From a virus, in the IMG/VR virus record IMGVR_UViG_3300035661_000247, positions 1 through 30,458 of that record: DNA of 30,458 nt; one strand, given 5' to 3'. Position numbers and translations under genes: made by a program. Below the pieces are notes generated by a model. That model was not told where the DNA came from, did no database searches, and saw only the letters and a program-made list of their open reading frames with translations. The stretch's first letter is position 1, and every line of letters starts with the position of its first letter. Positions 14,950 to 30,458 of this stretch are shown here, in pieces.

Positions 14950-17322
14950 TCATTTCCGGTCGAACTCCCTCAACTCTGCCATGTTGCGCCCGATCTTGGC
15001 ATCAGCCACGAACTTCAGTTGAGGCTTCCAACCAACTTTTTCAAACGGAAGCGACTCCATCAACTCCAGTTCGCGCTTCACGTAGAACTCGTAGTTGTCC
15101 TCTGGTATGTAGACGTACTTGGCGTCATGGATGGCCCCGAAGCAGGGAGCTTCCTTAAACCAGCCCTGCTGATGGGAGATCGCAATAGCCCAGATCATCA
15201 TGTCAGACAGGCAGCTCTGCACCGGACTGTTGATGGCCTGGCGTTCAGCACCCGCCTGCACTTCGCGCTTCACGCTATTGATCAGCGGGAGATGGCGCAC
15301 CCGGCCCAGGGGGGAGGTGACGTACCCATGCTTCCGTGCGAAGGCTTTGTAGGTCTTGTGGTACTCCGGCAGACGGTAATACGTCTCGAAGAATCCCGAG
15401 CGGAACTTGTCCGCCTCCTCGAAGGAGAGCTTAACGCCGTAGTTCAGTTCCGCGTAGCTCTGGAACCCTTCTGTTCCCATGCCATAGATCAGCCCGAAAT
15501 TACCCGCTTTGCCAAGCTGCCGTATGCGGTCGAACATCTCCTTATTCGTCTTTTTCAGGGCCAGCATTTCCTCGTAACTGTAGCCAGCGAACCGACCAGA
15601 GGTTATGACGTGCAAGTCCATGCCCCGGGCATACGCCTCTATCATGGTCTCATCGTTGGCTATACAGGCGATCACCCGCAGTTCACCTTGAGAGTAGTCG
15701 TTCTCCAGCACAAGCATTCCTGGCGGGGCTGGGAAACACTTACGTAGCTTCTTCGCCCATTTAGTATGCTTTGGTATGGTCTGGAACGCAGGGTCTCTAC
15801 ACGACAACCTCCCAGTATTGGTTCCCCCTTCACCTTCATCCTTGTTACCCGCAAAGAAGTAATATGAGGGGTGGAATCTTCCATCACTACGAATGTGCTT
15901 TTGGAACCCATACACGTAGGTGGCAAGCGTCTTCGTGGCCGAAGAGAAGTCCTTCAGCAGTGCGACGAACTCCGTGGCTTCGGGTACTTCCTTGAACATC
16001 ATCAGGTGATCCAAAGAGGTGCTCGGGGCTCCGGTCTTCTCCGTGGTCATCTTAGGCTTCAAGTTCAGGCCCATCGGGGAGAACATAAAATCCACCAACA
16101 GACTGGCCTTGGTCAGGTTCAAGCCACCCCTCTTGTCTGGGTCATGGTGTTTGGCTACCAATCGCCCCCCCATGATACTCTTAGCCTTGGTGGTCAGCGT
16201 GTCGAGTTCACCTAGAAGGTCTGTCTCCAATTCCTTGTAGGCGTCCATGTCCACCAGCACGCCACCGCGCTCCACCATCTCGAAGGCTCGGGCCGCAGGG
16301 TGGAGGATGTTCACGTAAAAGCCTGCCAGTGCCGGTGTCTTCAGCAAGTCCTGCTTCATCACTTTGCGGACACGCAGACAGCCATCCGTATCACCCCCAG
16401 CGTAGGGCAGCAGGGTCTCTGGTGGAACCAAGTCCATCCGACTCTTGTCAATCTGCCGATCAAACTCGTCCGAGTAACCCCCCAACTCAGGAGCATAGAT
16501 TTTCACATGGACATCCAGTCCGTTCGAGCGGTTCTCATCAAGCAAAGAGCCTACGAGGGTGGTGTCGAACTTGAAGTTCGTGCATTCCAGGCGGGCCCTC
16601 ACAGCGACCCAGTGAAGATCGAATTTCAGGTTCGCACCACCAAGGCTCACCTTGGGGGTATTCAGGAACCAGCCCAACTGCTCCAAGAACTCCATATCCG
16701 ACAGCCCCGCTTCCTCCGCCTTCCGGCTATCGAAGCGTTTCACGTAGGACTTGCCTGGTTCAACCGATACTTGCACCGTGACAATGTATGCGCCTGGGTG
16801 ATCATCTTTTGGGAGCAGATAGGGGTCTAGTCCCACTGTCTCCAAGTCCAGTGTGGATTCGACTGGCTTTCCAGTCTCAGCGAACAGGGCGTCAACCCTA
16901 GCGTTCACCTCCTTAAAGTCGTCCACGTATTTGTACTCCCCCAACACAGGGCTCTTGGAACCAGTCTTGGCGAAGCGGCAGGCAGTGCCAACATCGGTCA
17001 ACAGATCGACGTACTTGCCGTAGTCCATGTCCACAATCCCGGGGGCGTAGCTGAACATGATCGGGCAACCAAAGGTCTCGTGCCCGAAGTAGCTGCCTCG
17101 AAGACTTGTGGTGGTTCGCCCCTTGGGCACCACCTTCATAGTCTCCATCAACAGCTTGGGGTCGTTCCCCAACGCCAAAATGACCACAGCCCCCTGCACT
17201 TTGGGGGTAGTAGTCAGGTCATTCACAATCTGGATGTCCAGGCCATTGAACCCGGACAGAACCGGGGACAGGGCCGTGAGCACCTTAGCTTGCGAGTCTT
17301 TGCACCAAATTACCAGAGACAT
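14950..17322 (-). CDS. Family A DNA polymerase with 3'-5' exonuclease, 790 residues
   Basis: Replicative polymerase. The exonuclease domain has Exo I (DLE, Asp159 and Glu161), Exo II (NLKFD, Asp235) and Exo III (YAGGD, Tyr307 and Asp311). The polymerase domain has motif A DYSQGELR (Asp542), motif B RQLGKAGNFGLIYG (Arg601, Lys605, Phe609, Tyr613) and motif C IHDA (His732, Asp733). Two departures from the usual pattern are Gly for Ile in DYSQIELR and Ala for Glu in HDE. Phe609 is at the position of E. coli Phe762. The N-terminal 130 residues are not a recognised domain. The gene overlaps the upstream gene by 38 bases, with a weak Shine-Dalgarno, so translation is probably coupled. It is the last gene of the replication transcript, before a terminator. 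Confidence 0.95.
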   Translation of the reverse strand: MSLVIWCKDSQAKVLTALSPVLSGFNGLDIQIVNDLTTTPKVQGAVVILALGNDPKLLMETMKVVPKGRTTTSLRGSYFGHETFGCPIMFSYAPGIVDMDYGKYVDLLTDVGTACRFAKTGSKSPVLGEYKYVDDFKEVNARVDALFAETGKPVESTLDLETVGLDPYLLPKDDHPGAYIVTVQVSVEPGKSYVKRFDSRKAEEAGLSDMEFLEQLGWFLNTPKVSLGGANLKFDLHWVAVRARLECTNFKFDTTLVGSLLDENRSNGLDVHVKIYAPELGGYSDEFDRQIDKSRMDLVPPETLLPYAGGDTDGCLRVRKVMKQDLLKTPALAGFYVNILHPAARAFEMVERGGVLVDMDAYKELETDLLGELDTLTTKAKSIMGGRLVAKHHDPDKRGGLNLTKASLLVDFMFSPMGLNLKPKMTTEKTGAPSTSLDHLMMFKEVPEATEFVALLKDFSSATKTLATYVYGFQKHIRSDGRFHPSYYFFAGNKDEGEGGTNTGRLSCRDPAFQTIPKHTKWAKKLRKCFPAPPGMLVLENDYSQGELRVIACIANDETMIEAYARGMDLHVITSGRFAGYSYEEMLALKKTNKEMFDRIRQLGKAGNFGLIYGMGTEGFQSYAELNYGVKLSFEEADKFRSGFFETYYRLPEYHKTYKAFARKHGYVTSPLGRVRHLPLINSVKREVQAGAERQAINSPVQSCLSDMMIWAIAISHQQGWFKEAPCFGAIHDAKYVYIPEDNYEFYVKRELELMESLPFEKVGWKPQLKFVADAKIGRNMAELREFDRK

Positions 17323-18783: not shown

Positions 18784-18812
18784 ATCGTAGTACAATTTTA
18801 CAAGTTTGTCAA
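18784..18812 (-). promoter_or_regulatory. Promoter of the polymerase transcript
   Basis: TTGACA (18812-18807), 17 bases, TACGAT (18789-18784). The -35 box overlaps the TGA stop codon of the preceding phosphatase gene. The same TTGACAAAC start is found at five other promoters in the window. Confidence 0.8.
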
Positions 18813-19585
18813 ACGGTGGCCCAAATATTTCGAGCTGATTCCACCGGATGAATCTGCTTGGCTGCCGATGACAACGGGGCCGGTGTTTTCTTCGACAGGG
18901 ATGACCCCGACGAACCCAGTGAGCCCTTGCTCTTGGGCACCTGCCGCGCACTCTGGGTGTTGGCTGTGAGTGCCGAGGACTTGCCCCAACTGGATGAATG
19001 CTTGTGCTCCCCGTAGTATTCTCCCCCGTGGTAATCACCTCCGTACAGGTGCGCCTTCGAGCCCCCTATCTTCTTGATGCCGTAGTGCTCGTGCAGGAAG
19101 TTCACCTGCTCAGCGCTCTCCACAGCTCGGTGACAGTAATTCTCACGCACGTAGGTGATGGCGTCCTCCGTGCCAATCATGTACCTGACCAGGGCGGCTA
19201 GGAAAGTGCCGGTGCGCCCATGCCCACCAATGCAACCTGCATGCAACTTCTTCCCCGCCCTGATCTGCTCCGCCGCCCATACCACCATCTTCTTAAACTC
19301 CGTGACGTTGCGAGGTGCCGCACCATCTGCAACGTAGAACAGCACCTCTATCTTGCCCCCGGGGTTCCAGGGGAAACTGTCCGGAGTCAAACGCATACCG
19401 CTATCAAAGCCTATGTAGATGTCCGCATCCGGAACCGAAGGGGTGATGCAGCTTCCTCCGTACACCTTCAGATCGCCACCTAGGTCGAGGGCAGGGTGGG
19501 TCTCATAACACCGCTTGGGGGCACCTCCCTTATGGCGGTAGTGATTGAGTTCATCGCTGAACGAGTCAAATGATTTCTTGCTCAT
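18809..19585 (-). CDS. CX5R cysteine phosphatase (dual-specificity type), 258 residues
   Basis: The motif HAGCIGGHGRTGTFLAAL carries the cysteine-phosphatase P-loop (Cys118, Arg124) found in protein tyrosine/dual-specificity phosphatases and related RNA 5'-phosphatases. The loop VADGAAPRNV with Asp88 could supply the general acid. Following residues TYVRENYCHRAVESAEQ resemble the second phosphatase at 20689-21216. Residues 170-258 are a Gly/His/Tyr then Ser/Lys-rich low-complexity tail. The ATG at 19585 has CAATGGAGTGG upstream; the GTG nine bases earlier lies in that site. Substrate is unknown: phosphoproteins, phospholipid or 5'-phosphate RNA are all possible. Confidence 0.85.
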   Translation of the reverse strand: MSKKSFDSFSDELNHYRHKGGAPKRCYETHPALDLGGDLKVYGGSCITPSVPDADIYIGFDSGMRLTPDSFPWNPGGKIEVLFYVADGAAPRNVTEFKKMVVWAAEQIRAGKKLHAGCIGGHGRTGTFLAALVRYMIGTEDAITYVRENYCHRAVESAEQVNFLHEHYGIKKIGGSKAHLYGGDYHGGEYYGEHKHSSSWGKSSALTANTQSARQVPKSKGSLGSSGSSLSKKTPAPLSSAAKQIHPVESARNIWATV

Positions 19586-19603
19586 AGTTTCCACTCCATT
19601 GGA

Positions 19604-20656
19604 TTATGCATGTGCAAGGCTCTTGGCCTCACGGGTATAAACCGGCACTTTTTGGCCGGGAAACGCTTCCCACTCTCCAACAACCATGAACTTCCCGTCC
19701 TTGGTCTTGGTGGGCTCGACGGGCTTAGGTGGCACCATCACGTCTTGGTCTTTCTTCTCTTTCGGGTACGTGTGCAGTGCGCCGAGGCTTTCTACCTTGT
19801 ACCAGTCAACGTAGTCTCCTATCTCATTCGGTAACTGCTGCTTCACCGTCCGGCAAAGCGACTGCACCCCAGGGTCAATGAAACTTACAGGCAGGTGCTT
19901 GGTTCCTGCGATCACCAGTTCTGGCACCTGACCACTGCGCTGAACATCCAACACCTTGTAGATGTCACTCGTGTACATGTGATACATCATTCCCTTGTTA
20001 AACATCGGGCCGTTGTTGTGGGCCAACGTGTACGCCGTGTCCACCATCATCTCCAGGCTGGTCTTGCCGTTCACAAAAGCGGCGATGGTGGCTGCGATAT
20101 TAGCCCAGGCCTTGCCCCCGTAGCCACCACTGAACGACCCCTTGGTGAAGATGTAGACAAGACTATCAAGGTACGGGCCAAGCGGCATCACCGGTGGGTT
20201 CGACAGGAATTTGCTGACCGCACCGTCCGAAGAACCACCCTTGATCGACAGATTGAAACCATAGGCCACCTCCCCGAACTTGGGCACGAACTTCTCCTGC
20301 CACGTTGCTGTGGTGGAGTTCTTGATATGGCGGGACTCTCTGGTCACGATCAGCAGCATGTAGAAAAACATTCGCTGACCCTGAGAAACTATGCACTTGA
20401 GGTATGCATCCATCACCTGCGCCGCCCATTCAGGCAGCTTCTCATGAGGCGTGAAGTTCTTGCGAACAATCGCCGCTAGGTGGTTCAGAGCGTAGAACTC
20501 AAGGGCATCCATGTCAGGTATCTTGTAGCCACAGCTACTCTTGAACTGCTTGCAATTGATTGCAACCGATGGCGTATGCACATGAGCATGACTCACCACC
20601 TTCAACTGGGGGACAGACTCGTAATAAGTCCGAGTCCCTGGGACTTCGTATTTCAT
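19604..20656 (-). CDS. Uncharacterised protein between two phosphatase genes, 350 residues
   Basis: The ATG at 20656 has CAATGGAGTGAGCC upstream and its own promoter at 20690-20718. The protein is soluble and mainly helical, with recognisable stretches FSGGYGGKAWANIAATIAAF and AYTLAHNNGPMFNKGMMYHM, rich in His, Asn and Gly and possibly an active or binding site. I do not recognise a family. It sits between two related phosphatases, with only 18 bases to the next gene, so it is probably co-expressed with the second one. The 14-bp element is in the coding region (VAINCK). Confidence 0.75.
   Translation of the reverse strand: MKYEVPGTRTYYESVPQLKVVSHAHVHTPSVAINCKQFKSSCGYKIPDMDALEFYALNHLAAIVRKNFTPHEKLPEWAAQVMDAYLKCIVSQGQRMFFYMLLIVTRESRHIKNSTTATWQEKFVPKFGEVAYGFNLSIKGGSSDGAVSKFLSNPPVMPLGPYLDSLVYIFTKGSFSGGYGGKAWANIAATIAAFVNGKTSLEMMVDTAYTLAHNNGPMFNKGMMYHMYTSDIYKVLDVQRSGQVPELVIAGTKHLPVSFIDPGVQSLCRTVKQQLPNEIGDYVDWYKVESLGALHTYPKEKKDQDVMVPPKPVEPTKTKDGKFMVVGEWEAFPGQKVPVYTREAKSLAHA
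20551..20564. repeat. 14-bp dispersed element, copy 10
   Basis: Exact TGCAATTGATTGCA on the plus strand, inside the 350-residue gene, in a reading frame (AINC) different from most coding copies. Confidence 0.95.
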
Positions 20657-20688: not shown

Positions 20689-21216
20689 TTATTCTGCCAG
20701 AATTTCGAGGTTTGTCAAATCAGTGAGGCAATTTTTCCAGCGAAAAAACGACATAAAACGTGCCCACTTCAGTTCTTTCACCACCTCAGCAGGGACTTCG
20801 TAGTCCATCACGAAGTGGTACTGGGCGCTGGTCTCCACAGCATGGCTGTAGTAGTGCTCACGGACGAACTCCACTGGATTCTCTACCCCAAACGCCTTGG
20901 CGAGGATTGCTAGAAAAAGCCCGGTACGGCCACGGCCAGCCATGCAGCCCACGTACAGCACCTTGCCTCTCGTGATCGCCTTCACCGCCTCCAGCAGTCC
21001 ACGATCCAACACGATCTTGGGTGGCACCTGGAAGTCAGGCGTAGGGATGTCGATCTCACAGGGGCGACGAATCTCCGCTGCCATCTTTACACCGATGAAC
21101 TTCTTGCTCCTGGGCTTCTTGGTGTACGGGCCACCAAAAACGAGATAGTGCTTCTTCTTGCGCAAACTCAAGGCCAAATGGCCGTTACCGACGCCTAACT
21201 TTGGTTGTTTTTGCAT
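20689..21216 (-). CDS. Second CX5R cysteine phosphatase, 175 residues
   Basis: The motif YVGCMAGRGRTGLFLAIL has the P-loop Cys91 and Arg97, and EFVREHYYSHAVETSAQYHF aligns with the same region of the phosphatase at 18809-19585, so the two are paralogues. DIPTPDFQVP (Asp61) may hold the acid loop. It lacks the low-complexity tail. The ATG at 21216 has AAAGGAGTGTAACAA upstream; it lies within the end of the preceding gene by 32 bases. Its last codons overlap the promoter of the next gene. Substrate unknown. Confidence 0.85.
   Translation of the reverse strand: MQKQPKLGVGNGHLALSLRKKKHYLVFGGPYTKKPRSKKFIGVKMAAEIRRPCEIDIPTPDFQVPPKIVLDRGLLEAVKAITRGKVLYVGCMAGRGRTGLFLAILAKAFGVENPVEFVREHYYSHAVETSAQYHFVMDYEVPAEVVKELKWARFMSFFRWKNCLTDLTNLEILAE
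20690..20718 (-). promoter_or_regulatory. Promoter of the 350-residue gene
   Basis: TTGACA (20718-20713), 17 bases, AGAATA (20695-20690), inside the 3' end of the second phosphatase gene. It is one of the TTGACAAAC family. Confidence 0.65.
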
Positions 21217-21535
21217 TTGTTACACTCCTTTGTCGTTGACGATACAGGACACGAACTTGTCCAACGTAGTCGCAGTGGTCACATCCACTGCCTTCACAGT
21301 GTTCGCACTCTTCGTGCACCACCATATCCATCGACCCATAACGGGTCACTTCCTTGATCCAGTGATTCATCCTGGTGACGTGTGCTCCCTTGACCTCGAA
21401 CAACCACTGATGGAACCTACAATTGCCGAGTCCGTGGGTAACGATGGCCGCACTCTTCACCATCTGCTGAAATTCATCCCAGCCGATGCCTTCGTCGGTC
21501 AGGACTTCTTGCACTTCAGGACTTGCGGTGATCAT
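21185..21535 (-). CDS. Hypothetical protein with C-terminal CxxC metal site, 116 residues
   Basis: I use the ATG at 21535 (MITASPEVQEVL) because GGAGG lies five bases upstream. Residues about 78-92 contain CEHCEGSGCDHC, two CxxC pairs in a DnaJ-like zinc-knuckle arrangement, followed by a basic C-terminus. The N-terminal part is helical. It overlaps both neighbours, so all are probably translated together. A small metal-binding, perhaps nucleic-acid-binding, protein; no family is recognised. Confidence 0.75.
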   Translation of the reverse strand: MITASPEVQEVLTDEGIGWDEFQQMVKSAAIVTHGLGNCRFHQWLFEVKGAHVTRMNHWIKEVTRYGSMDMVVHEECEHCEGSGCDHCDYVGQVRVLYRQRQRSVTNAKTTKVRRR

Positions 21536-21800
21536 TCTGGCCTCCAAGTCTCCTAATCTTCACTTCTTTCGGCGCTTCGATTGCGATGCGGGATGAAGCA
21601 CCAAAGTATTTCTCCTCCGATACCCCACAACTGAGGAATACATTAGGCAGGACTTCCGTGCGCTCTCGATCCGTGATCAGGAACTTCTGCTTTCCGATCA
21701 GCACCTGAACGTGGGTTCCATTCGAGACATCGACCACTTCGAGGATCGAGTCACCCACCTGAACCTTGCTTCCTTTGCTTACACCAATACTAAGGGCCAT
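21516..21800 (-). CDS. CsrA-like small protein, 94 residues
   Basis: The start is the ATG at 21800 (MALSIGVSKGSKVQVGDSIL), with CAATGGAGTGAATAAA upstream; the open frame continues further upstream but is in the wrong frame of the preceding gene. The first part (SKGSKVQVGDSILEVVDV) and the last part (SRIAIEAPKEVKIRR) resemble the two halves of the CsrA/RsmA RNA-binding fold, in which IGDxI and RIGIxAPKEVxVxR are typical. About 38 residues (VLPNVFLSCGV in the middle) are inserted between them. CsrA proteins bind GGA in mRNA leaders and control translation. The resemblance is by eye and needs a structural check. Confidence 0.7.
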   Translation of the reverse strand: MALSIGVSKGSKVQVGDSILEVVDVSNGTHVQVLIGKQKFLITDRERTEVLPNVFLSCGVSEEKYFGASSRIAIEAPKEVKIRRLGGQNDHRKS

Positions 21801-21832: not shown

Positions 21833-22291
21833 CTAATCTAGTCCGAGCAAGTACGAAGCCTTGCTCGTCAAAGTCCACGTCGAGCCACCCACCATCCCAC
21901 GCCTGGAAGTCACGGAGGTGACAAGTCCCCTCGCCCGAAGGATGGTTAGGTAGCTGGACACGTCCGAGGTCGTGTAATCCTTTCCCATCTCCTGCAACCG
22001 TTCGGTTACTTCTCCAGAACTGGCCTCGTCTTCCACCGTGAGTATCATCAACGTCTCCCACAGCTTCGTGCCCTTGCGAGGCAGCTTCACATCGTCCCCA
22101 GAGTCGTTGTGCTCTATCTCGATGCTTTGAAGCGTAGTGGCTACTACTTTCAGGTAGCCGCACATGCAACGATGAATGAGGTCGCAGTTGGTCTTCTCGA
22201 ACCATGAGGACATCGAACCACACTTCGGGCACTCTAGTTTCATGCTGGGTACTCTCTTCGGGTATTCCGGCATTGTAGAGCATCTTCTCAT
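21833..22291 (-). CDS. Zinc-ribbon plus winged-helix protein, 152 residues
   Basis: Starts at ATG 22291, overlapping the upstream stop (ATGA); the ATG at 22243 (MKLECPKCGS) is an alternative and perhaps better start, as it places the zinc ribbon at the N-terminus. CPKCGS with the later C and CMC form a four-cysteine zinc ribbon. Residues 70-152 (KLWETLMILTVEDEASSGEV, TSDVSSYLTILRARGLV, TWTLT) look like a winged helix-turn-helix. This points to a DNA-binding regulator, and it is the only clear such protein in the window, so it is a candidate for recognising the 14-bp element. Confidence 0.75.
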   Translation of the reverse strand: MRRCSTMPEYPKRVPSMKLECPKCGSMSSWFEKTNCDLIHRCMCGYLKVVATTLQSIEIEHNDSGDDVKLPRKGTKLWETLMILTVEDEASSGEVTERLQEMGKDYTTSDVSSYLTILRARGLVTSVTSRRGMVGGSTWTLTSKASYLLGLD

Positions 22292-24306
22292 CTCAGCAAA
22301 CAGGCAAGTACCTGAGCCTCTGACACGTAACTCGTGGAGCTGTGGTTTTCCTTGCCAATCGTACTGAACTTGACACCTTCCGCCTTTTTCCAGCCTATAA
22401 CCTTGTCAACCGCTGGCGTCGGCTGTCCTACCCAGATCAACTCCTCATCAGCTAGGATCAGGTCTTCCAACCCCGAAGCCACCGACAACTTCTGGAGGGT
22501 AGTCTCCTTGATCAGGTTTCCAGCCAGCAGCTTGATCTTCTCACAACCTTCAACCTCTTCTAGGGCCTTGACCAACCGGCACTTGAGGGCCGCCTCCGGG
22601 CCTGCTGACGTGTCTAACATCGAGAAGTCTGGTATGTGCTCGTAGAACATGCTGTAGTACGCAGTTTCTTGCTCCGTTGGGGCCGTGAGGTCAACTATCA
22701 GCGTTTCCACGTTGGGAAGCGTTTGTCGAACCAGCGTGACGGCTTCCTCCAAGGGCATCGTCAGCTTGTCGTCCATGCGCAGCATCTTGGTGCCACCAGT
22801 GGGATTCTCCGTGATCTCCACCGACTGACCTTTATTGAAGACCTTCCAGCATAGTTCTTTGAAGGCAATCACGTCCTTGTTGCTGCTGCCGTCAATCACA
22901 GGCACCTTACCGAGCCAGACCCGTCCAGTGGCCCCATCGAAGCTGAGGACTGTCGGGCCATGCACGAAGCTGGTTATGTCCTTGCCAAGGCCCACCACAC
23001 AGGGCTTGTTCATACCCCGTGCAACCACCGCTGCGTGGCTAGTAGCACCTCCCGTCATGGTCAACACGCCCACCGCTGCGTTCATACCTGCTATGTCATC
23101 TGGCGTGGTCTCCTGGGTTACGAGGATGCAGGGCTCTTTGCAATTGATTGCATCGGCGGCGGACAGTACAGCTATCCCAGTCACCACACCCGAACAGGCT
23201 GGTATGCCTGTTGCGAATGGTTCGTCCTTGAACTTCGGGTCGAGAATCGACTGCTGAGCGAGATCGAGTTCCTTGAGAGTCACCCGCTTCACGGCCTCCG
23301 CAGGGGTCAACAGACCCTCCGTCACCATGTCCACGGCGATCTTGACTGCTGCCCGTGCACTTCTCTTTGCATTGCGGGTCTGGAGGATGAACAGCTTGCC
23401 GTCCTGAACCGTAAACTCGATGTCCTGCACATCCTTCCTGGCGCTCTCCAACTTCAGTGACACGTCGAGGATTTCCTGCGCCACCGTGTCGTTCCAGTTC
23501 GACATCTCGGACAAGTCCTGGGGCGTGCGGATGCCCGCCACCACGTCTTCCCCCTGGGCGTTGACCAGATACTCCCCCACCACCTTACCGTCACCGTTGT
23601 CCGGGTTCCTAGTGAACAACACCCCGGTGCAACTGTTGTCGTTCAGGTTTCCGAAGACCATCGCCTGTACAACCACCGCCGTGCCCCACTCTTCCGGGAT
23701 GTTGTTCATCTTCCGGTAGAACCTGGCCCGGTCATTGTTCCAGGACTTGAAGACTGCCTCTATGGCCCCTATCACCTGCGCCTTTGCGGTTGGGAAGGGG
23801 TGGCCCGTCTCCTTCTGGAACACGTCCAAGGCAGACAGTACATCATCCTTTTCGAGCAGATGCCGATTGATACCATACACCACGTTACCGTACATGGTGA
23901 TAAGACGGTGCAAGCTGTCGGTGTATGCTTCATCACCCAGCTTCTTTCGCCACAGGGCTTCCGTGGTCTGGTCTAGTCCCACGTTCAAGATCGTGTCCAT
24001 CATCCCCGGCATCGACACGCGAGCACCCGAGCGAACGGACAGAAGGGGCATGAAGCCGAACTGCCCCTTGAAGAACTTCTCGATATTGGCATACTGACTG
24101 GCGATCTTCTTCATCGTGCCCTTGGGGGCCTTCATGTAGGCAGTGCACATCGTCGTGGGTATGATCAGTGCCGGGGGCACGTTCACCCCCTGCTGCTGCA
24201 TCCACCAGAGACCGTACCCCTTGCCCCCTAAGAACTTGGCATCCAACTCCTGACCCTCGTACTCTGGCAGGGCAGGAACTTCCTTGTCAAAAACTGAAAT
24301 AAGCAT
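22288..24306 (-). CDS. Pyruvate phosphate dikinase-like protein without PEP barrel, 672 residues
   Basis: PPDK and PEP synthase use ATP to phosphorylate a swivelling histidine, then pass the phosphate to pyruvate. The ATP-grasp half is clear: GGKGYGLWWM (27-36), SVRSGARVSMPGMMDTILN (90-108, Arg92), NSCTGVLFTRNPDNGDG (224-240), and IEF...LQTR (Glu297, Gln309, Arg311). The phosphohistidine domain has TMTGGATSHAAVVARG with His424. The usual C-terminal TIM barrel (about 350 residues, GLxRTEHMF and a catalytic Cys) is not seen; about 200 unmatched residues follow instead. The phosphate acceptor is therefore unknown. It starts at 24306 with CAATGGAGTGAACT and has its own promoter. Confidence 0.9.
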   Translation of the reverse strand: MLISVFDKEVPALPEYEGQELDAKFLGGKGYGLWWMQQQGVNVPPALIIPTTMCTAYMKAPKGTMKKIASQYANIEKFFKGQFGFMPLLSVRSGARVSMPGMMDTILNVGLDQTTEALWRKKLGDEAYTDSLHRLITMYGNVVYGINRHLLEKDDVLSALDVFQKETGHPFPTAKAQVIGAIEAVFKSWNNDRARFYRKMNNIPEEWGTAVVVQAMVFGNLNDNSCTGVLFTRNPDNGDGKVVGEYLVNAQGEDVVAGIRTPQDLSEMSNWNDTVAQEILDVSLKLESARKDVQDIEFTVQDGKLFILQTRNAKRSARAAVKIAVDMVTEGLLTPAEAVKRVTLKELDLAQQSILDPKFKDEPFATGIPACSGVVTGIAVLSAADAINCKEPCILVTQETTPDDIAGMNAAVGVLTMTGGATSHAAVVARGMNKPCVVGLGKDITSFVHGPTVLSFDGATGRVWLGKVPVIDGSSNKDVIAFKELCWKVFNKGQSVEITENPTGGTKMLRMDDKLTMPLEEAVTLVRQTLPNVETLIVDLTAPTEQETAYYSMFYEHIPDFSMLDTSAGPEAALKCRLVKALEEVEGCEKIKLLAGNLIKETTLQKLSVASGLEDLILADEELIWVGQPTPAVDKVIGWKKAEGVKFSTIGKENHSSTSYVSEAQVLACLLR
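23139..23152. repeat. 14-bp dispersed element, copy 11
   Basis: Exact TGCAATTGATTGCA on the plus strand, inside the PPDK-like gene, encoding DAINCK at the edge of the phosphohistidine domain. Confidence 0.95.
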
Positions 24307-29391: not shown

Positions 29392-29574
29392 TCAAGTTTT
29401 TATCGGCGGCTCACCACATCGGTTCTTCACCTCACGGCCAGTTCGTGTATCCCTGAAAGCGTCCGAGTAGCTTAACACCACTCCTTGGCTAGATGAACGA
29501 CCTGGCGAGAGTTCGAGCACTACCCTCCCGTCTGGGAGCTTAACCTTCAATTTGAACACCTTCTCGTACACCAT
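29392..29574 (-). CDS. Small protein, 60 residues
   Basis: The ATG at 29574 overlaps the thyX stop (TGATG). The product begins MVYEKVFKLKVKLPDGRVVL, a strand-rich start with a LPDG turn, and has a basic C-terminus. The longer open frame upstream lies within thyX in another frame and is rejected. Family not recognised; it is probably translated with thyX. Confidence 0.65.
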   Translation of the reverse strand: MVYEKVFKLKVKLPDGRVVLELSPGRSSSQGVVLSYSDAFRDTRTGREVKNRCGEPPIKT

Positions 29575-30458
29575 CAGGTCAACGCTCTCTTCAGTTGAAG
29601 GATGGATAGTTCCAGCGCCTTCAAGGCGTAAAGGGATGCGCCCCCAAGATCGCACAGGGTCTCGAAGTCGATGTAACACTGGCGGGCCTTGCTGTGCGGC
29701 TCCTTCTCTATCAGCAGCCGAAATCGTCCCGGGTTTGAGATGTAGCTGACCGGCGTGGTCTCATAGGTGGCTATCTCGTCGCGGATGTACCAGAGGGCCT
29801 TGTCAAGGTTTTTAGCGATGCTCTCCTGGAGGGTGAGGCCATACTCCGGCTTCTCGTCACGACGAAACACATACTTGAAGGCGTTGCCAACGTTGAAGTT
29901 CATGCACCGGCATAACTCAATGGCTTCGACACCACTCGGGTGGTTGTTGTAGTGCGCGGCCACTTGAACACCATTCAAGTCAATAATCTTACCAGTGGTG
30001 CCCACCAACTCACGATCAACCGCTTCCGGGGCCGGGGGTGTTTCAAGTTCCGCCAGGGCTGCGTGGGTTACATCCCCACTCATTGGGAGTTCTACTTGGT
30101 TTTCGAGGAAGTCTCGGTACTGACGCCAGCCACGGAAGTTGTGGCAAAAGTTTCCAGTCTCCATCGGGGTTGCTGGGTGCTCAGCGGGGGAGGCGTGCAG
30201 CGGCTCGGCCCCCACCAGCTTATCGTGCAGCTTAACGTCTTCGGTCAGCTTGGAGGGCTTGCCATCGAACGTCAGATACGAGGTGCGGGCGTTGCGTGCC
30301 GTGGACACCTTTACCAGGATGCTGTTGCCGTGCTTGGAGGTTTCCTCCTCCGTGATGTAGGGCAGATGCCACTCACCCTCCTTGAGGAACTTCGGCTTGC
30401 TCCCTCTCATGGCATCACGGATGGCTTTGGCTAGTTCCTGAATCTCCGGCTGGGCATC
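29574..30458 (-). CDS. thyX: Thymidylate synthase ThyX C-terminal part fused to DUF3310, cut by the right edge
   Basis: The frame is open to base 30458, so the start is outside; ATG 30410 is internal. The visible part begins DAQPEIQELAKAIRDAM, then GEWHLPYI, VSTARNARTSYLTFDGKP, HASPAEHPATP and NFRGWRQYRDFLEN, which are the C-terminal half of phage ThyX (FAD-dependent dTMP synthesis); the RHRxxS motif would lie just outside. About 60 Ala/Glu/Pro-rich residues then join it to HYNNHPSGVEAIELCRCMNF and FKYVFRRDEK...LDKALWYIRDE, the phage DUF3310 domain of unknown function. The fusion of the two is unusual to my knowledge. Confidence 0.85.
   Translation of the reverse strand, partial: DAQPEIQELAKAIRDAMRGSKPKFLKEGEWHLPYITEEETSKHGNSILVKVSTARNARTSYLTFDGKPSKLTEDVKLHDKLVGAEPLHASPAEHPATPMETGNFCHNFRGWRQYRDFLENQVELPMSGDVTHAALAELETPPAPEAVDRELVGTTGKIIDLNGVQVAAHYNNHPSGVEAIELCRCMNFNVGNAFKYVFRRDEKPEYGLTLQESIAKNLDKALWYIRDEIATYETTPVSYISNPGRFRLLIEKEPHSKARQCYIDFETLCDLGGASLYALKALELSILQLKRALT

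What the first reader, a model, noticed from the sequence alone, without database searches (positions are those of the whole stretch)
22288..24306. Phage PPDK-like enzyme lacks the pyruvate/PEP domain
ATP-grasp and phosphohistidine domains are complete, with Arg92, Glu297, Gln309, Arg311 and His424 in place, so ATP-dependent autophosphorylation is likely. The C-terminal barrel that accepts or donates phosphate in PPDK is replaced by about 200 unfamiliar residues. Rifampin phosphotransferase shows that this chemistry can be redirected to other acceptors. The phage enzyme might phosphorylate a nucleotide, a host metabolite, a drug-like molecule or a protein.
Basis: partly seen in the sequence, partly recalled or inferred. 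Interest (0 to 1): 0.65.

Follow-up and report, generated by a model that had tools for sequence, protein, structure and literature searches.

The report
Phage kinase with phosphatase partners
A phage gene that databases call a sugar-metabolism enzyme has kept the half that loads phosphate from ATP but lost the chemistry of the pyruvate half, and it is always found beside one or two phosphatases and an unknown helical protein, so it is probably the kinase of an undescribed phage phosphorylation system.

Summary
R92, E297, Q309 and R311 are kept in 85 of 85 phage homologues and H424 in 84 of 85. The C-terminal ~209 residues are not a new domain. They model confidently (pLDDT 89) as a shrunken TIM barrel; the best fold matches are PEP-binding barrels, only marginally ahead of unrelated TIM barrels. 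Sequence has decayed (median identity 15%, against 48-54% for the rest), the catalytic motifs are gone, and no PEP-barrel protein is encoded elsewhere in seven complete relatives. So it is very unlikely to be a PPDK, contrary to published phage annotations.

The larger finding is its company. Kinase, one or two DSP-type phosphatases and a conserved 350-aa helical protein without a PDB match form a locked cassette beside DNA polymerase, seen from three independent anchors. Most likely it autophosphorylates on His424 and feeds a phosphorylation cycle reversed by the phosphatases; the acceptor is unknown. A barrel-less PPDK-derived histidine kinase, VadK, is known, but the phage proteins form a separate clade. 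Two carrier phages have restriction-resistant DNA, an untested lead. New variant of a known kind.

The parts
22288..24306 (-). K: PPDK-derived kinase, 672 aa, whole gene
23272..24249 (-). K residues 20-345, ATP-grasp nucleotide-binding domain (R92, E297, Q309, R311)
   Evidence: 70 of 325 columns at least 95% conserved
22918..23223 (-). K residues 362-463, phosphohistidine swivelling domain; H424 codon at 23035-23037
   Evidence: (H in 84/85)
22291..22917 (-). K residues 464-672, shrunken TIM barrel without PEP/pyruvate catalytic motifs
20689..21216 (-). P1: DSP/PTP-type phosphatase, CX5R motif GCMAGRGRTG, 175 aa
   Evidence: PHROG name 'thymidylate synthase' is a misannotation
19604..20656 (-). 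D: 350-aa mostly helical protein, phrog_20946, 18 invariant residues including R106, E107, R109, H213, N214, K221, D237, Q239
   Evidence: no PDB match
18809..19594 (-). P2: second DSP/PTP-type phosphatase, GCIGGHGRTG, with low-complexity C-terminal tail, 261 aa
21516..21800 (-). small CsrA-like ORF between K and P1 (homologue in 70/75 loci); start at MALSIGV inferred
   Evidence: CsrA Pfam 1.9e-6 in the Vibrio homologue, weak in the window copy
21185..21547 (-). small ORF between the CsrA-like ORF and P1 (59/75 loci)
14950..17322 (-). family A DNA polymerase, conserved flank of the cassette

Best explanation
K descends from a pyruvate phosphate dikinase captured once by an ancestor of this phage lineage. 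It still takes phosphate from ATP and parks it on His424 (inferred from complete active-site conservation and from the VadK precedent; not shown for the phage protein). It no longer makes or uses PEP: the C-terminal barrel has shrunk to about 210 residues, lost its catalytic motifs and probably serves only as a scaffold or dimer piece (fold predicted, scaffold role inferred). The phosphate goes to an acceptor defined by the cassette rather than by the barrel, most plausibly one bound by or acted on by the helical protein D, and the DSP phosphatases P1 and P2 remove it again. The unit K + D + one or two DSPs is thus a phage-encoded phosphorylation/dephosphorylation cycle, placed in one operon-like run beside the replication polymerase (co-directional, closely packed genes: shown; cycle and acceptor: inferred).
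For: Active-site residues kept in 84-85 of 85 homologues. Barrel: fold by AlphaFold2 and VIA-align; GTNDL and IRxxD motifs 0/85, present in 5/5 and 4/5 bacterial PPDKs; 0 of 183 C-terminal columns at least 95% conserved against 70/325 and 20/100 in the ATP and His domains; a group of members has only about 133-171 C-terminal residues. TIGR01828 PPDK score 469 against cut-off 843; bacterial control 1362. No PF02896 elsewhere. Locked cassette: of 75 non-redundant K loci, DSP in 74 and D in 72; 80 D-anchored viral and 7 bacterial-contig loci have K and DSP except where a contig end or broken frame intervenes; 42 of 42 polymerase-anchored loci with over 9 kb upstream have K and D. Both DSPs keep the invariant Asp, CX5R and Gln. 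Phage K is one clade, 100/100, apart from bacterial PPDK and actinobacterial short forms. Four of six bacterial assemblies holding the cassette also hold a full-length PPDK, so K is not supplying a missing enzyme there. VadK autophosphorylates its catalytic His without any barrel (PMC13400623).
Against: No biochemistry exists for any phage K. Co-conservation is within one broad phage lineage, so part of the linkage is shared ancestry; DNA polymerase and portal are also conserved there. That D or the DSPs share a substrate with K is inferred from linkage alone. The SIO-2-like Vibrio clade lacks P2 and one phage lacks P1, so the exact phosphatase set is not fixed. The barrel assignment rests on fold only: profile comparison with PPDK barrels was negative and unrelated TIM barrels score within about one Z unit.
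Confidence: 0.62

Rival explanations
1. It is a functional PPDK, an auxiliary metabolic gene that boosts host carbon and energy metabolism, as several phage papers state.
For: Annotated so in many phages; PMC12038007 reports an AlphaFold/DALI match to PPDK 1GGO and PEP docking for the Vibrio phage J26 protein.
Against: Barrel catalytic motifs absent in the 85 homologues tested; far below the PPDK equivalog cut-off; no separate PEP barrel gene; C-terminal half diverged to 15% identity. In PMC12038007 complete overlap with 1GGO is reported only for residues 1-527, the ATP and His domains. A carbon-metabolism accessory gene would not be expected in 42/42 polymerase-bearing loci infecting unrelated hosts.
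Confidence: 0.05
2. The cassette makes or edits a hypermodified base or sugar on phage DNA: K phosphorylates a nucleotide, base or DNA-bound sugar, D processes it, P1/P2 trim phosphates.
For: Both carrier phages with reported digests have refractory DNA: DLP5 cut by only 4 of 36 endonucleases (PMC5834331) and DLP3 resistant to 15 of 15 (PMC7326821). The cassette lies beside DNA polymerase in a replication/packaging stretch.
Against: Those phages also encode a sugar-nucleotide and glycosyltransferase cluster that could explain the resistance. That glycosyltransferase is detectable in only 10 of 30 carriers, thymidylate synthase in 1/30 and ThyX in 11/31 (10 over cut-off), so none is an obligate partner. 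No digest of a carrier without the glycosyltransferase was found.
Confidence: 0.2
3. K is a protein histidine kinase or phosphodonor of VadK type that switches host metabolic enzymes, with P1/P2 acting on unrelated host phosphoproteins.
For: VadK precedent: autophosphorylates His422 and pulls down methylcitrate-cycle enzymes (PMC13400623).
Against: Does not explain the obligate link to D. VadK-like short forms group with bacterial PPDKs, not with phage K. A host-specific target is hard to square with conservation across hosts.
Confidence: 0.12

Closest known systems
Pyruvate phosphate dikinase (TIGR01828; C. symbiosum 1KBL/1DIK)
   Same: ATP-grasp and swivelling phosphohistidine domains in the same order, all ATP-site residues and the catalytic His present; about 38-46% identical to bacterial PPDKs over this stretch.
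   Different: C-terminal domain about 210 instead of about 350 residues, catalytic motifs lost; 469 bits against cut-off 843.
VadK / Rv1127c and other short PPDK-like proteins of actinobacteria (NF004531/PRK05878)
   Same: PPDK-derived kinase without a working PEP barrel; VadK autophosphorylates its catalytic His (PMC13400623).
   Different: VadK ends after the His domain; phage K keeps a degenerate folded barrel, forms its own clade and sits in a cassette with DSP phosphatases and D.
Rifampin phosphotransferase Rph (NF041857)
   Same: ATP-grasp plus phosphohistidine domain redirected to a non-pyruvate acceptor.
   Different: Different domain order, own acceptor domain; 43 bits against cut-off 999.
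Plant starch cycle: glucan, water dikinase (GWD) with DSP phosphatases SEX4/LSF2
   Same: A phosphohistidine dikinase paired with dual-specificity phosphatases that reverse its product (analogy, from general knowledge).
   Different: No carbohydrate-binding domain seen in the Pfam scans; homology is limited to the shared dikinase and DSP folds; substrate unknown.
Phage 'PPDK' AMGs of Vibrio, Stenotrophomonas, Rhizobium and Rhodobacter phages
   Same: Same protein family.
   Different: Previously treated as carbon-metabolism genes; in the papers read, the degenerate barrel and the four-gene cassette are not described.

Membership tests
Pyruvate phosphate dikinase | ATP-grasp domain with the ATP/Pi-site residues R92, E323, Q335, R337 | tested here: met
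   Aligned; conserved 85/85 each.
Pyruvate phosphate dikinase | Phosphohistidine swivelling domain with catalytic His (H455) | tested here: met
   H424 in 84/85; Pfam PF00391 8e-24.
Pyruvate phosphate dikinase | C-terminal PEP/pyruvate barrel with catalytic motifs (CRTEH, IRxxD, GTNDL, CGE) | tested here: not met
   IRxxD and GTNDL 0/85, RTE-like 2/85, CGE-like 7/85; PPDK controls keep GTNDL, RTE and CGE 5/5. No PF02896 match in the window or seven relatives.
Pyruvate phosphate dikinase | Score above the curated equivalog cut-off | tested here: not met
   469-570 bits in four phage members against 843.45; control 1361.7.
Pyruvate phosphate dikinase | Interconversion of pyruvate and PEP | not testable with these tools
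   Needs an enzyme assay.
PEP-binding TIM barrel (C-terminal domain of PPDK, PEP synthase, Enzyme I) | TIM-barrel fold related to the PEP-binding barrels | tested here: inconclusive
   Best matches are PEP synthase barrels (Z 10.1, 9.2), but a glycerophosphodiesterase barrel reaches 9.0; profile-profile comparison negative.
VadK-type short PPDK kinase (NF004531) | Score above the family cut-off | tested here: inconclusive
   P0001 455.5 against 456; DLP3 460.5; Vibrio 382.5; RcZahn 414.6.
VadK-type short PPDK kinase (NF004531) | Chain ends soon after the His domain | tested here: not met
   About 209 further residues form a confident domain.
VadK-type short PPDK kinase (NF004531) | Common ancestry with actinobacterial short forms to the exclusion of full PPDKs | tested here: not met
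   Phage K one clade 100/100; short forms L199 and L200 group with Rubrobacter PPDK on the bacterial side (L199 and L200 are long branches).
Rifampin phosphotransferase | Score above the Rph cut-off | tested here: not met
   43 bits against 999; only ATP-grasp and His stretches match.
DSP/PTP phosphatase (P1, P2) | CX5R(T) loop plus general-acid Asp | tested here: met
   Invariant D61, C91, R97, T98, Q132 in 26 aligned P1/P2 proteins; Tc-R-P in 26/26 and PTP-SAK in 25/26 at E up to 0.01.
GWD/SEX4-type glucan phosphorylation cycle | Glucan substrate or carbohydrate-binding module | not tested
   No such domain appeared in the Pfam scans of K, P1, P2 or D; substrate not assayable here.

The most novel reading that the evidence does not exclude
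K, D and the DSPs form a new phosphohistidine-driven modification pathway, probably of phage DNA or a nucleotide, in which a former metabolic enzyme became the phosphate donor and D is a new enzyme fold; it would be a previously unknown route of phage DNA protection or control of replication.
Probability: 0.2. Interest if true: 0.85.

Novelty: new variant of a known kind. Interest (0 to 1): 0.6.

Why it matters
Several published phage genome papers list this gene as a PPDK that helps host carbon metabolism; the evidence here says that is very unlikely to be its role. It is instead a second, phage-borne case of a metabolic dikinase turned into a kinase of another kind, next to VadK. It comes as a fixed unit with one or two phosphatases and a protein family (D) with strongly conserved charged residues and no known relative in PDB, so the unit is directly testable: four proteins, a defined catalytic His and a defined catalytic Cys. 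Two carriers have heavily restriction-resistant DNA of unknown chemistry, which gives a concrete readout.

Tried and rejected
Missing barrel encoded as a separate subunit: PF02896 gave nothing in the window or seven complete phage genomes. Chance or pseudogene: rejected by 85 homologues and by purifying selection in both halves. Sequence-level homology of the C-terminus to PPDK barrels: hhalign probability under 3%, so the barrel claim rests on fold and position alone. D: no significant Pfam, NCBIfam or PADLOC match, PDB Foldseek best E 0.63 and VIA-align best Z 4.4, BFVD only a few unnamed viral proteins; I noticed a faint HD-like pattern (H110, H213-N214, D237) but could not test it. Fixed partnership with thymidylate synthase, ThyX, ParB or the DLP3 glycosyltransferase: tested and not universal (1/30, 11/31, 19/31, 10/30). 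Anti-defence or defence system: no PADLOC match. Papers on carrier Vibrio phages held no restriction-digest data that could test the DNA-modification idea; the VHS1 and SIO-2 papers are not in the library. One tree row (L200) was labelled 'full' by ORF length because the stop-to-stop ORF is long; its annotated protein is 549 aa, a short form. One plasmid homologue (L203) gave no usable ORF and was left out of the tree.

Full report
WHAT IS THERE. The ORF at 22288-24306 lies on the minus strand and encodes 672 aa. Pfam recognises PPDK_N and the PEP-utilizers mobile (His) domain and nothing after residue 461. phmmer against PDB gives C. symbiosum PPDK at 2.5e-102 over residues 18-474, and the printed alignment places R92, E297, Q309, R311 and H424 on the PPDK catalytic positions. 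In 85 distinct phage homologues these are conserved 85, 85, 85, 85 and 84 times.

THE C-TERMINUS. Residues 464-672 are the only fast part: median pairwise identity 15% against 48% (ATP-grasp) and 54% (His domain), and 0 of 183 columns are at least 95% conserved against 70 of 325 and 20 of 100. dN/dS between close pairs is higher than in the front half but mostly below 0.5, so the domain is kept, with relaxed constraint. With 65 homologues AlphaFold2 gives pLDDT 89.1 and pTM 0.84 and an alternating strand-helix pattern. VIA-align puts PEP synthase barrels first (9dae Z 10.1, rmsd 5.6, 187 residues aligned; 2ols Z 9.2), with Enzyme I 8.6 and PPDK 5jvn 8.4, but other TIM barrels reach 9.0, and Foldseek alone has no E below 0.001. 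Taken with its position straight after the His domain, I read it as the decayed PPDK barrel. The catalytic motifs are gone: IRxxD and GTNDL 0/85, RTE 2/85, CGE-like 7/85, against 4/5, 5/5, 5/5 and 5/5 in bacterial PPDK controls. A group of members has only about 133-171 residues there. PF02896 is found nowhere else in the window or in seven complete relatives, while the same search rings in 14 of 14 control genomes.

NOT A PPDK. The NCBIfam PPDK equivalog scores 469 bits against a cut-off of 843; a bacterial control scores 1362. The short-PPDK model NF004531 scores 455.5 against 456. That model led to VadK (Rv1127c), described in 2026 as a PPDK-derived kinase lacking the pyruvate domain that autophosphorylates His422 (PMC13400623). 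So loss of the barrel with retention of autophosphorylation is known. In a maximum-likelihood tree of the ATP and His domains the phage proteins are one group (100/100), and actinobacterial short forms fall among bacterial PPDKs, so the phage case looks independent (the actinobacterial rows are long branches). Published phage papers, including one with PEP docking on Vibrio phage J26 (PMC12038007), treat the gene as a working PPDK; there, complete overlap with 1GGO is stated only for residues 1-527.

THE CASSETTE. Annotated relatives (Stenotrophomonas DLP3 and DLP5, Rhizobium TM16 and Y1_11, Rhodobacter RcZahn, many Vibrio siphophages) show the kinase followed by a tyrosine-phosphatase-like gene, an unknown gene of about 340 aa, often a second phosphatase-like gene, then DNA polymerase and portal. 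Tested systematically: in 75 non-redundant kinase loci the phosphatase family is found in 74, D in 72, DNA polymerase in 66, most shortfalls being short or truncated contigs; the order is K-(CsrA-like)-(small ORF)-P1-D-P2-pol. The SIO-2-like Vibrio clade lacks P2. Anchoring on D instead, 80 viral and 7 bacterial-contig loci again carry K and phosphatases unless a contig end or broken frame intervenes. Anchoring on the polymerase, 42 of 42 loci with more than 9 kb upstream have K and D. This is one broad phage lineage, so linkage alone does not prove joint function, but K-D-DSP is clearly core, not an optional metabolic gene. Four of six bacterial assemblies that contain the cassette also contain a full PPDK above cut-off.

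THE PARTNERS. P1 and P2 are DSP/PTP-fold phosphatases with invariant Asp, CX5R and Gln; 'thymidylate synthase' in PHROGs and in some phage records is a misannotation. D (phrog_20946) has 18 invariant residues in 58 sequences, many charged or polar, an AlphaFold model at pLDDT 93, no PDB relative (best VIA-align Z 4.4) and only a few unnamed viral matches.

MECHANISM. Shown: conservation of the loading half, loss of barrel motifs, the obligate cassette. Inferred: His424 autophosphorylation (probability about 0.85), no PEP chemistry (about 0.95), acceptor defined by D and reset by the DSPs (about 0.6). The plant starch cycle, a phosphohistidine dikinase opposed by DSP phosphatases, is a useful analogy for how it could work, not a family claim. 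The DNA-modification rival is kept at 0.2 because DLP5 and DLP3 DNA resist most enzymes (PMC5834331; PMC7326821), yet the sugar cluster of these phages is an alternative cause and its glycosyltransferase is detected in only 10 of 30 carriers.

VERDICT. Observation right in substance; interpretation right that the chemistry is redirected, wrong that a new acceptor domain replaced the barrel. New variant of a known kind (PPDK-derived non-PPDK kinase), with an undescribed partner cassette.

Noticed in passing
window 20689-21216 and 18809-19594: PHROG phrog_17568 and several phage records call these DSP phosphatases 'thymidylate synthase'; they carry CX5R phosphatase loops.
   Followed up: yes
L007:5707-6804 (Bacillus phage G gp139): A 365-aa mini PPDK-like protein with shortened ATP-grasp and His domain and no C-terminal domain at all, in an unrelated jumbo phage; none of its annotated neighbours resembles the cassette.
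   Followed up: partly
window 21516-21800: CsrA-like ORF between kinase and phosphatase, homologous in 70/75 loci; convincing CsrA Pfam match in the Vibrio homologue only, so a phage RNA-binding regulator is likely but unproven.
   Followed up: partly
window 29574-30410: Protein matching a PHROG named thymidylate synthase (phrog_85) in its first part and DUF3310 in its second; DLP3 has a ThyX-like gene and a DUF3310 gene side by side.
   Followed up: no
L204 (IMGVR_UViG_3300035180_000306): Contig whose DNA polymerase is 100% identical to the window's, so a near-identical phage exists in another contig; it is cut just before the cassette.
   Followed up: no
L098:34671-41227 and L099:44393-49184: PIG-L deacetylase, epimerase, aminotransferase, methyltransferase and glycosyltransferase run just before ParB/terminase in DLP3 and RcZahn; a plausible DNA-sugar pathway for phages with refractory DNA.
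   Followed up: partly
L016, L184, L185, L186: Records labelled 'Listeria phage', 'Enterococcus phage' or 'Bacteriophage sp.' hold full-length bacterial-type PPDK, probably host DNA in phage preparations.
   Followed up: no
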